Virus record (IMG/VR): IMGVR_UViG_3300020193_001177
Coordinates: 1 to 36,192 of that record
Source of the DNA: a virus
Length of the DNA stretch: 36,192 nt
Direction: 5' to 3' (one strand)
Positions within the stretch are counted from its first letter, which is position 1; each line of letters opens with the position of its first letter. Positions 30,222 through 33,400 of this stretch are shown piece by piece. The notes below the pieces were generated by a model. It made no database searches, was not told the origin of the DNA, and saw only the letters and a list, made by a program, of their open reading frames with translations. Both the position numbers and the translations under genes were made by a program.

Positions 30222-30229
30222 TATTTATA
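30222..30229 (-). promoter_or_regulatory. Late promoter TATAAATA for gp18
   Basis: Exact consensus on the minus strand between the terL stop and gp18 start. Confidence 0.75.
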
Positions 30230-30241
30230 ATTTCTAGATTT

Positions 30242-31984
30242 TCAGAAATAATTATTATAGTTTCCAATACTTTGCCAAAAATCGTTGTCTGGATCACCCT
30301 CAATTTTACTATCGTCATCATAAGATCCAAAAAATCCAATTGGTAATAAATCACGATCAACAACTTCTTCAGTTTCTTTTATTAGTTCTTTTCGAATGCT
30401 ATTATCTGTATATTCAGAAAAATTTTTCTGTGCAGCTAACCAACCAAACAACACTAAACACATTGCTAAGTCGTCATTATAACCTTCTTCAGCACCATAT
30501 TTACCGTCTGGATGTAAAACGAAAGTTGAAAGTTCGCTGATTAATTCAAAATCATTTAAAACAACTTTGTGACCTTCAACCAAGGTTTTCATGTTAGAAC
30601 AACCTAATCTTTTAGTAGTTCTAGTAGTTCTAATACCACGTTTAAATTTTTCTGAAGATAAACCTGTTGTTAGAATTTGATCGTTTGTATTATTTACAGA
30701 AAGAATATTTTCATATTCTAGATCATGATATAAAATATCAACAATCTGACCACCTACGTCATTAATTTCAACTAACACTTGAGCTTCATTATATTTTCTT
30801 GCAGCTTTACTAATAACGGTAGGATATGCCATTGGGACAATATCATTTCTTTTAAATGTAGCTACAACTTTATAAGGTATTTCTGATACATTTACAATAA
30901 TAAAAGCAGAGTAATTTTTACCAACCCCTCTGGCAACATCAACCATCATAAAATATTTTTGATTTTTCTTTGGTTCTTCGAATACTCTAAAACCATCTTT
31001 ATCATGTAGGGGATCATTAAATCTAAGAGATCTTAATGTTTCAGATTTAATCAGTGTATCTGCTGAACCTAAGAATTCATTTCCATATTCTTGACGAAAT
31101 CCAGATTCAGTAAGAGTGGAAACCATTTGTTCTTTCCACTTTTGATCTCTTCCAGGAACATCACTCCAATGAACTTCAATCGGAAAAAATTCATTTCTTT
31201 TTTCGGTTGCGTCTTTGTAAATTCTATAAAATAAATTTAATCCTCTTGGTGTAGAAGAAATAACAACTTTAGAAGATGTTCCAGAACTAACAACGGGAAA
31301 TGTTGATGTGAAAAATTCATCAGCACCTTCAACGAACGCAAATTCGTCAAGATAAAGAAAATTACACATGAAACCGCGAATTGATGAAGATGATGTGGAT
31401 GAAGCAATAATTCTTGAATTGTTTCCTAATTCAATAGAACCTTTATTAAAAGTTGTTGCTCCAGGTTGTAGGAAAAATGGAATTGTTTTGTAGGCTGTAA
31501 CAATTTTAGAAAGAATTTCTCTTGCAACAACACCTTTGTTTGCAAGAATTGCTACTGTTTTATCAGCATTAAAGAAAACATACCACAATATATAGCTTGA
31601 AATCGTAATGGTATTATGTGATAAAATATCATTTGAATAAAATCTGTGATTATCGGAATCAACAGTAATATCAAACATATTTTCTTTTCTAGTAGTTACA
31701 TAACATTTTGTAACTAAACTAGGACCATATTTTGTTTGTATGTAGGAAACATTTGGAACAAGATTTTTAATAAAAACTTCAGAAAAATTTTCATCAAACA
31801 AAATATGATCGTCCGCACATTCTAAATGTAGATAATTTTCTGTTTCTAAATACCAAACATCATATTCTATTGTTTGATGAATCTGGGAAATTGATTGAAA
31901 ACCAGTGTCTGTTTCAATTTCCCAATCAGAAATATCAATAGTGTCTATGAATTTTCTTTCTATTGTGTCAGATAATTTAAGCAT
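30242..31984 (-). CDS. 17: Terminase large subunit gp17, C-terminal part, preceded by C-intein
   Basis: A 580-aa precursor. Residues 1-124 are the C-terminal half of a split intein: ECADDHILF (block B, about 55-63), NMFDITVDSDNHRFYSNDI (block F) and LSHN at 121-124, with penultimate His and terminal Asn. From Thr125 the protein is terminase: TITISSYILWYVF, AILANKG, Walker B FLYLDEFAF, coupling motif ISSTPRG, then the RNase-H-like nuclease with MMVDVARG, VEINDVGGQ and DDLAMCLVLFGW. Thr125 is the +1 extein residue and completes the Walker A GKT of the N-terminal fragment. Trans-splicing would give an 85+456 = 541-aa enzyme, normal for marine T4-like phages. It packages DNA into proheads. SD is weak (AAAGA). 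Confidence 0.93.
   Translation of the reverse strand: MLKLSDTIERKFIDTIDISDWEIETDTGFQSISQIHQTIEYDVWYLETENYLHLECADDHILFDENFSEVFIKNLVPNVSYIQTKYGPSLVTKCYVTTRKENMFDITVDSDNHRFYSNDILSHNTITISSYILWYVFFNADKTVAILANKGVVAREILSKIVTAYKTIPFFLQPGATTFNKGSIELGNNSRIIASSTSSSSIRGFMCNFLYLDEFAFVEGADEFFTSTFPVVSSGTSSKVVISSTPRGLNLFYRIYKDATEKRNEFFPIEVHWSDVPGRDQKWKEQMVSTLTESGFRQEYGNEFLGSADTLIKSETLRSLRFNDPLHDKDGFRVFEEPKKNQKYFMMVDVARGVGKNYSAFIIVNVSEIPYKVVATFKRNDIVPMAYPTVISKAARKYNEAQVLVEINDVGGQIVDILYHDLEYENILSVNNTNDQILTTGLSSEKFKRGIRTTRTTKRLGCSNMKTLVEGHKVVLNDFELISELSTFVLHPDGKYGAEEGYNDDLAMCLVLFGWLAAQKNFSEYTDNSIRKELIKETEEVVDRDLLPIGFFGSYDDDSKIEGDPDNDFWQSIGNYNNYF
31613..31984 (-). other. Split intein, C-terminal half (124 aa)
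   Basis: Contains all Hint blocks after block A: WEIETDTGFQSISQIHQT, block B with the His of DDH, and blocks F and G ending SHN before Thr. With only 38 residues in the partner, the split falls before block B. That is the atypical arrangement described for Ace Lake TerL inteins. Confidence 0.88.
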
Positions 31985-31987
31985 TCT

Positions 31988-32385
31988 TTAATAACTTTTT
32001 CTGGATTCTGCAAAATATATATTAGTTAAATCATTTAACTTATCAGCAATTTCCCAAAATAATTTCTCAGAACTTTGCGTTGATACGCTGGATTTTTATC
32101 ACCTTCAACTCTTTTAGAACTATTTTCTAAGTAAGTTTGTGAACAAAGAGGACTGTTGTAAATATTTTTATATTGTTTTGCTGTTAAATTGTGTGTTTTA
32201 ATGTGTGATGATAGTTGATGTGAAAAAATACCACAAACTTTACAAGACACTTTAGTAGGATCTGGTTTTATTTTTGTTTTTAGTAGGTTTTGATCATAAC
32301 AATTAGTAGAACAAAATTTTGAATTAGGATGTCCTGTATAACTAACATCACAATTGCGACAATTCTTGGTTTTTAGTTTTTGCAT
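31988..32385 (-). pseudogene. Remnant of a free-standing homing endonuclease (Vsr-like type) between the intein halves
   Basis: The open part (to 32035) starts at the ATG at 32385, with GGGGA 5 nt upstream. It encodes two zinc modules: CRNCDVSYTG...CSTNC and CKVCG followed by LSSHIKTHNLTAKQYKN. It runs to EGDKNPAYQ and then an unrelated end. In another frame, from about 32077 to a stop at 31988, the sequence continues as SSEKLFWEIADKL and NIYFAESRKSY. I recall that pattern from just before the catalytic domain of the endonucleases found inside fractured phage genes. So an internal deletion with frameshift joined the zinc-finger part to a shortened C-part. The catalytic EDxHD region is gone, and the product should be inactive. 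Confidence 0.7.
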
Positions 32386-32464
32386 AAAAGTCCCCAATAG
32401 TACATTTTATAATTTCGCCTGTTTTTTTGTTTCTTAGGCTTATAATACTATTTGTGCAAAGGCA
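32348..32464 (-). other. Split intein, N-terminal half (38 aa)
   Basis: Block A begins with the nucleophile Cys, which directly follows the SGRQSGK extein end. It contains only block A; block B is in the C-half. The reading frame stops with QELSQL. Confidence 0.88.
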
Positions 32465-32719
32465 TTTTCCACTCTGACGCCCACTCAAAATTACGCTATG
32501 TCTATTATTATGAACAGATTCCACAATGTTTTTTTGATAAGTTCTTAGATTTAAAGGAACAAGACCCTTATCAATTGTGTTTACTTGAATATATTTCTCA
32601 ATAAAATAAATAGGATCTTGAGAACAGCGAATATATTCTTGAACCTGATCTTGAGTATAATTTTCAACGATTCCTGCTGCCTTAACAGAGGGATCTTTGT
32701 AATACGAAATATTGTTCAT
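32348..32719 (-). CDS. 17: Terminase large subunit gp17, N-terminal part, followed by N-intein
   Basis: A 123-aa precursor. Residues 1-85 are the start of TerL: a helical N-terminus, FIEKYIQVNTIDKGLVPLNL, RTYQKNIVESVHNNRHSVIL and the first part of Walker A, SGRQSGK (79-85). The chain then switches to an intein: Cys86 begins CLCTNSIISLRNKKTGEI, then CTIGDFYAKTK, stop after 38 residues. Extein and intein meet exactly between the Lys and Thr of GKT, a known intein insertion point in P-loops. The ATG lies 2 nt from the stop of the upstream structural gene. Its last 38 nt overlap the start of the endonuclease remnant. Confidence 0.92.
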   Translation of the reverse strand: MNNISYYKDPSVKAAGIVENYTQDQVQEYIRCSQDPIYFIEKYIQVNTIDKGLVPLNLRTYQKNIVESVHNNRHSVILSGRQSGKCLCTNSIISLRNKKTGEIIKCTIGDFYAKTKNQELSQL

Positions 32720-33392: not shown

Positions 33393-33400
33393 TATTTATA
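33393..33400 (-). promoter_or_regulatory. Late promoter TATAAATA for the 216-aa protein and terL
   Basis: Exact consensus 20 nt before the ATG at 33372; AGGAG lies between. Confidence 0.7.

What the first reader, a model, noticed from the sequence alone, without database searches (positions are those of the whole stretch)
30242..32719. Terminase large-subunit gene fractured in Walker A by an atypically split intein
Seen: one ORF ends its terminase part at SGRQSGK and continues as Cys-initiated block A for 38 residues. A second ORF 360 nt downstream starts with blocks B, F and G, ends LSHN and continues T-ITISSYILWY, Walker B, coupling motif and nuclease. Joining K85 to T125 rebuilds a perfect P-loop (SGRQSGKT) and a normal 541-aa TerL. 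Known: fractured genes with split inteins were described from marine metagenomes, and an atypical early split was described for Ace Lake TerL. Inference: the phage depends on protein trans-splicing to package its DNA, and splicing completes the ATP site, so packaging ATPase activity would be strictly conditional on it.
Basis: partly seen in the sequence, partly recalled or inferred. Interest (0 to 1): 0.88.

Follow-up and report, generated by a model that had tools for sequence, protein, structure and literature searches.

The report
Phage packaging motor rebuilt by protein trans-splicing
A marine-type virus of bacteria has the gene for its DNA-packaging motor cut in two by a split "protein intron" whose own DNA-cutting gene has decayed, so a working motor can probably be made only if the two protein pieces splice themselves together; this is a well-documented new case of a known arrangement.

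Summary
The window (a T4-like myovirus fragment) encodes TerL as two ORFs: TerL 1-85 + 38-aa IntN, and 124-aa IntC + TerL 86-541, split inside Walker A (SGRQSGK|T). Joining gives a 541-aa TerL that aligns to T4 gp17 without a gap at the junction. Syntenic sister phages (82-84% nt) carry TerL uninterrupted, with exactly the predicted product (..SGRQSGKTITISS..), so the 852-nt insert is a removable element. IntC is predicted to fold as a Hint domain, all splicing residues are present, and TerL dN/dS is 0.05-0.10.

In intact relatives this gene overlaps IntN's end and, in 46 of 60, IntC's start by exactly 25 nt. The family is large (469 IMG/VR hits; 106 of 107 complete loci split) and also sits in gp46-like and DnaB P-loops. 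AceL/GOS-TerL is a distant intein at a different TerL site.

Best explanation: a functional split intein left by a now immobile homing element, a new member of the known "fractured gene" kind. More surprising, related TerL genes are broken two or three times; one spans four ORFs. Splicing itself was not shown.

The parts
32465..32719 (-). TerL N-terminal extein, residues 1-85, ending SGRQSGK (first part of Walker A)
   Evidence: phrog_5989 terminase E 3e-24; joined TerL aligns to T4 gp17; 94% identical to sister TerL L072
32351..32464 (-). IntN, 38 aa from Cys1 (CLCTNSIISLRN..); stop codon at 32348-32350
   Evidence: aligned with 50+ IntN sequences, Cys1 conserved
32080..32385 (-). Homing endonuclease remnant, piece 1: N-terminal zinc-finger-like part to GDKNPAYQ; its ATG overlaps the IntN 3' end by 38 nt (the ORF runs on to 32035 out of homology)
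   Evidence: matches residues 1-~108 of the intact L001 endonuclease, E 1e-19; overlap
32006..32074 (-). Endonuclease remnant, piece 2 (SSEKLFWEIADKLNDLTNIYFAE), in another frame
   Evidence: matches L001 endonuclease residues ~219-241, E 2e-10; L022 E 4.5e-9
31960..32010 (-). Endonuclease remnant, piece 3 (QNPEKVIKECLNYLTQ-stop); overlaps the IntC start codon and first codons by 25 nt
   Evidence: 81% identical to the last 16 residues of the L001 endonuclease; the 25-nt overlap is found in 46 of 60 relatives
31613..31984 (-). IntC, 124 aa (MLKLSDTIERKF..ILSHN)
   Evidence: profile matches gp41-1, VidaL and CatC inteins; AlphaFold pLDDT 91; Foldseek top hit VidaL
30242..31612 (-). TerL C-terminal extein, residues 86-541, from Thr+1: rest of ATPase plus nuclease
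   Evidence: Terminase_6N and Terminase_6C; T4 gp17
31613..32464 (-). Whole inserted element (852 nt), absent from sister phages
   Evidence: L072-L074 read SGRQSGKTITISS in one frame
32465..32485 (-). Left half of a tract of synonymous codon replacement next to the insertion (co-conversion-like footprint)
   Evidence: 12 of 16 codons around the junction differ from L072, all synonymous; the only such 16-codon window of 385
31586..31612 (-). Right half of the same synonymous tract
33393..33400 (-). TATAAATA, T4 late-promoter-like site upstream of the transcription unit that should hold both TerL halves; next one on this strand is 30222-30229; none in between
   Evidence: pattern only

Best explanation
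The TerL gene carries, between the Walker A Lys and Thr codons, the remains of a composite mobile element: a split intein whose halves flank a homing endonuclease gene. The two halves are translated as separate proteins, probably from one transcript. The short IntN (38 aa) docks into the largely pre-folded 124-aa IntC and completes a Hint domain. Cys1 undergoes the acyl shift, the TerL N-part is passed to Thr+1, Asn124 cyclises with help of His123, and a GK-T peptide bond forms. That restores the P-loop and a 541-aa TerL, so packaging ATPase activity would depend on trans-splicing. The endonuclease gene has lost most of its nuclease region, so this copy can no longer home by its own enzyme. 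Shown: anatomy, homology, predicted fold, empty site in sisters, selection, endonuclease decay. Inferred: co-transcription, the splicing reaction itself, dependence of packaging.
For: Exact empty site in syntenic sisters L072-L074. Joined TerL ungapped at the junction against T4 gp17. IntC profile hits gp41-1 E 9.9e-11 and VidaL 3e-9; pLDDT 91 model with VidaL as top structural match E 1.3e-7. Catalytic positions invariant across loci and present here. dN/dS 0.26/0.28 for IntN/IntC against L001 and 0.05/0.10 for TerL against L072. 106 of 107 loci with both halves are split in the same way. Delftia phage PhiW-14, a complete genome record with a named host, has TerL split at the same site. Three-piece endonuclease remnant.
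Against: No splicing, expression or protein data. The endonuclease no longer leads the ribosome into IntC, and the IntC start has only a weak A-rich leader, so IntC translation is assumed. The record is a 36-kb fragment, so a second terL elsewhere cannot be excluded. Selection on TerL may partly predate the insertion. No independent second copy of this exact insertion was found.
Confidence: 0.9

Rival explanations
1. The fractured terL is a pseudogene being lost; the phage uses another terminase or the genome is defective.
For: The endonuclease between the halves is clearly decayed, and the record is a fragment, so another terL cannot be ruled out.
Against: Both TerL parts are open and under strong purifying selection, as strong as in neighbouring structural genes; all splicing residues are kept; many other phages carry the same split in their TerL.
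Confidence: 0.04
2. Assembly or sequencing error in a contiguous intein or in a maxi-intein with an inserted endonuclease.
For: Contiguous forms of the same intein exist (Ackermannviridae; L055).
Against: 106 of 107 loci from many metagenomes are split at the same place; several stops and frame changes separate the halves; intact relatives have a separate endonuclease ORF overlapping both halves.
Confidence: 0.03
3. The two halves act as unspliced subunits that associate without a peptide bond, as reported for a phage ribonucleotide reductase split by a homing endonuclease.
For: A precedent of an essential phage enzyme working as two peptides after endonuclease insertion is cited in PMC10448857.
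Against: The break is between the catalytic P-loop Lys and Thr, both broken ends carry intact intein halves under selection, and the nearest sisters have one-piece TerL.
Confidence: 0.02
4. The insert is removed at RNA level (group I or II intron, or trans-splicing RNA).
For: Phage homing endonucleases often sit in introns.
Against: No Rfam match at E<=1; both ends of the insert are conserved intein-coding sequence.
Confidence: 0.01

Closest known systems
Fractured genes with split inteins and free-standing endonucleases (Dassa et al. 2009, NAR 37:2560; paper not held, content from memory and from citing papers)
   Same: Essential phage enzyme gene broken in two by a split intein with an endonuclease gene between the halves; endonucleases of a Vsr-like family
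   Different: As I recall, described for DNA synthesis and repair enzymes; here the packaging ATPase, and the endonuclease is a three-piece remnant
AceL-TerL / GOS-TerL atypical split inteins and their consensus Cat
   Same: Split inteins in phage TerL with a short IntN (25-37 aa; 38 here) and an early split
   Different: Other intein family and other TerL site (before CxFLGSS, Cys+1); CatC matches L006's second intein at E 4.9e-17 but not the window's IntC; IntC 124 aa instead of 104
Contiguous TerL inteins of Ackermannviridae (Salmonella Maynard and Marshall, Klebsiella Magnus, Vibrio Kuja and BX-1)
   Same: Homologous intein; Kuja and BX-1 checked here at the same Lys|Thr site in T4-type TerL; intein annotated for Maynard
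   Different: One open frame, no endonuclease, 30-45% identity to the window's IntC
Delftia phage PhiW-14 gp17
   Same: TerL split at the same Walker A site by the same intein family
   Different: No endonuclease, short spacer, 34% IntC identity; the N-terminal ORF is not annotated
Mycobacteriophage TerL1-a inteins (PMC5050341)
   Different: Contiguous; terminase_1 family
VidaL and gp41-1 split inteins (PDB 6vgv, 6qaz)
   Same: Nearest solved structures by sequence profile and by fold
   Different: Low identity (27% and 18%)

Membership tests
Fractured gene with split intein (Dassa type) | Conserved gene broken in two, each part fused to one half of an intein | tested here: met
Fractured gene with split intein (Dassa type) | Free-standing endonuclease gene between the halves | tested here: met
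   Present, but only as a three-piece remnant; intact in 60 of 82 non-identical relatives
Fractured gene with split intein (Dassa type) | Halves ligate by protein trans-splicing | not testable with these tools
   needs co-expression or mass spectrometry
Mobile (homing) intein element | Intact endonuclease able to cut the empty site | tested here: not met
   about 110 and 78 residues missing, pieces in different frames
Intein / Hint domain with Cys1, terminal His-Asn and a +1 nucleophile | Cys1, block B His, block F, C-terminal His-Asn, Thr/Ser/Cys at +1 | tested here: met
   Cys1, ADDH, MFDITV..NHRFY, SHN, Thr+1; fold
AceL/GOS-TerL (Cat) family | Sequence family of CatC | tested here: not met
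   window IntC has no CatC hit at E<=1; the family profile hits at 6.9e-6, against 4.9e-17 for a single intein at the other TerL site
AceL/GOS-TerL (Cat) family | Early split with short IntN (25-37 aa) | tested here: met
   38 aa; published range
AceL/GOS-TerL (Cat) family | Cys at +1 (stated for GOS-TerL) | tested here: not met
   Thr+1 in the window; GOS-TerL Cys+1
T4-type large terminase | ATPase plus RNase H-like nuclease, colinear over full length | tested here: met

The most novel reading that the evidence does not exclude
In this phage group TerL is commonly assembled from two to four separately translated pieces by up to three trans-splicing reactions, and the split state persists after the endonuclease dies because trans-splicing has become a useful checkpoint that keeps the packaging ATPase off until all pieces are made.
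Probability: 0.1. Interest if true: 0.8.

Novelty: new member of a known kind. Interest (0 to 1): 0.52.

Why it matters
The window and its relatives form a natural series: intact endonuclease, internally deleted endonuclease, minimal split with a very short spacer, and contiguous intein, plus matched empty sites. That makes the origin and persistence of split inteins testable. It also supplies many new early-split inteins (short IntN, 124-aa IntC) for protein engineering, and shows that an essential phage motor can be encoded in pieces that ordinary gene annotation misses.

Tried and rejected
RNA-level splicing: no Rfam match. AceL/GOS family membership: rejected. The window's endonuclease remnant alone found nothing in IMG/VR; intact relatives came from the IntC search. 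Exact-match scans for a second copy of this insertion found none. A donor for the flanking synonymous tract was sought among the fetched loci; inconclusive (best partial match L003). Promoter-like sites in the region are no more than chance and no terminator was found. The endonuclease columns picked the wrong ORF and were redone. Some ExtN dN/dS values for non-TerL loci are meaningless (upstream of the gene start) and were ignored. Pfam's Intein_splicing model hits IntC only below its cut-off (E 0.037), so a single-sequence Pfam scan would have missed the intein. The paper on fractured genes and the GOS-TerL paper were not held.

Full report
What is there. On the minus strand the window encodes TerL in two ORFs. 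ORF 1 (32348-32719) is TerL 1-85 followed by 38 residues starting with Cys; ORF 2 (30242-31984) is 124 residues ending LSHN followed by TerL 86-541. The joined protein is 541 aa, matches T4 gp17 structures at E 3e-91 with no gap at the junction, and raises the Pfam Terminase_6N score from 59 to 78.9 bits. Gene content and the capsid protein place the phage among T4-like myoviruses, nearest to pelagiphage Mosig and Methylophilales phages Melnitz (63-64% capsid identity). Those isolates carry an apparently whole annotated TerL gene.

Empty site. The decisive comparison is with L072-L074, three IMG/VR contigs that are syntenic and 82-84% identical in DNA. Their TerL reads HSVILSGRQSGKTITISSYILWY in one frame, exactly the product predicted from joining K85 to T125 of the two ORFs. 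The three are identical over TerL, so they count as one phage lineage seen three times. The insert is therefore 852 nt (31613-32464) and leaves no extra residue. TerL dN/dS between window and L072 is 0.05 (N part) and 0.10 (C part), while the tail sheath gene shows 0.16, so TerL function has been kept. Because the insertion may be recent, this does not by itself prove function after the insertion.

The intein. The IntC profile from 38 loci matches gp41-1 (E 9.9e-11), VidaL (3e-9) and CatC (6.9e-6) inteins in the PDB. AlphaFold gives pLDDT 91, and the best structural matches are VidaL (E 1.3e-7) and other inteins. Across loci the block B A-D-x-H, the block F Asp and the final Ser-His-Asn are invariant, IntN starts with Cys, and the +1 residue is always Thr or Ser. 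IntN and IntC are under purifying selection against L001 (dN/dS 0.26 and 0.28). IntC synonymous divergence from L001 (0.57) is well below that of the adjoining extein (1.48), which suggests that the intein moved horizontally.

What lies between. Three collinear pieces match the intact endonuclease of L001: residues 1-~108 (window 32385-32080), ~219-241 (32074-32006) and 320-335 plus stop (32010-31960). About 110 and 78 residues are missing, including most of the nuclease region. Intact relatives match DUF559/MTES_1575 nuclease models or a T5orf172 (GIY-YIG-type) domain. Among 82 non-identical split loci, 60 have an endonuclease ORF of at least 240 aa; 55 of these overlap the IntN end and 46 overlap the IntC start by exactly 25 nt. 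The window keeps that 25-nt overlap although the gene is dead, because the same bases encode the start of IntC. Other loci show similar decay (L006, L041, L059) or almost no spacer (L031, L032, L035, L069, L188).

Homing footprint. Around the insertion, 12 of 16 codons differ from L072, all synonymously; this is the only such window among 385. Further out the flanks are much more alike. Co-conversion of short flanks during homing would leave this, but the donor was not identified, so it remains an inference.

The family. The profile found 469 IMG/VR relatives, of which the best 80 were listed. Of 107 loci with both halves, 106 are split and one is contiguous. After removing identical ones: 42 in TerL, 35 in gp46-like P-loop proteins, 5 in DnaB-type helicases (domain checks), always after the P-loop Lys. 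The labels come from P-loop motifs and a sample of Pfam hits, so the gp46-like group is approximate. Contiguous relatives sit in TerL of Ackermannviridae and, two or three residues earlier, of Campylobacter phages. Delftia phage PhiW-14 (complete genome record, named host) has TerL split at the same site without an endonuclease, its N-terminal ORF unannotated, with two in-frame stops in a row after IntN. That is the best available sign that such a split is compatible with a living phage.

Relation to AceL/GOS-TerL. CatC, the consensus built from AceL and GOS TerL inteins, hits the intein in front of CHFLGSS in L006 at E 4.9e-17 but not the window's IntC at E<=1. GOS-TerL has Cys+1; the window has Thr+1. 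So the window's intein belongs to a different family at a different TerL site with a similarly early split.

Multiply broken TerL. Several relatives carry a second and third intein in the same gene, near Walker B and before the CxFLGSS motif. In L004 TerL is spread over four ORFs; joining them across three split inteins gives a 543-aa TerL with no gap at any junction. L005 is 99.5% identical over 6 kb but lacks the third intein, a natural empty site. I know of no described natural protein that needs three trans-splicing steps; searches of the held library found none, which is weak evidence of absence.

Mechanism and limits. A TATAAATA site lies upstream of the gene before TerL, and the next on that strand precedes the tail sheath gene; none lies between the halves, so co-transcription is likely. 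Splicing, its efficiency, and the dependence of packaging on it are inferred from established intein chemistry. Insertions between the P-loop Lys and Thr of TerL are already known for contiguous inteins (PMC5050341), and an intein in the Maynard TerL was reported (PMC3868846), so the idea that splicing completes the ATP site is not new.

Verdict. Observation confirmed, interpretation supported with corrections. New member of a known kind; the unusual parts are the dead endonuclease with a preserved split intein, the matched empty site, and the multiply broken relatives.

Noticed in passing
L004 2649-7306 (and L005): A TerL gene broken by three split inteins into four ORFs (Walker A, Walker B, CxFLGSS sites); the joined 543-aa TerL aligns without gaps at the junctions. 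L005, 99.5% identical over 6 kb, lacks the third intein and shows its empty site.
   Followed up: yes
L006, L024, L033, L034, L039, L043, L046, L054: TerL genes with two or three inteins each, most of them split, with Vsr-like or GIY-YIG-type endonucleases in some gaps.
   Followed up: partly
IMG/VR relatives L001-L060, L152-L199: The endonuclease ORF overlaps the IntC start by exactly 25 nt in 46 of 60 loci with a long endonuclease ORF, regardless of the host gene: one stretch of DNA encodes both the endonuclease C-terminus and the IntC N-terminus.
   Followed up: yes
L011, L017, L044 and others: The same split intein family sits at the P-loop Lys of gp46-like (AAA_23) and DnaB-type proteins, so it has spread between unrelated P-loop ATPase genes.
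   Followed up: partly
L065 about 2050-2860 (Delftia phage PhiW-14, GQ357915): An unannotated ORF encodes the N-terminal part of TerL plus IntN; the annotated gp17 starts with IntC. A deposited phage genome with an overlooked split TerL.
   Followed up: yes
L067 (Salicola phage SCTP-2, MF360958): The annotated terminase ORF starts with IntC and ends in a further IntN-like segment near Walker B; TerL appears to be broken into at least three pieces, the N-terminal one not near by.
   Followed up: partly
window 23620, 25105, 25950, 28237, 30222, 33393: TATAAATA is twice as frequent as expected (14 versus 7) and several minus-strand sites lie just upstream of structural genes, resembling T4 late promoters.
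   Followed up: no
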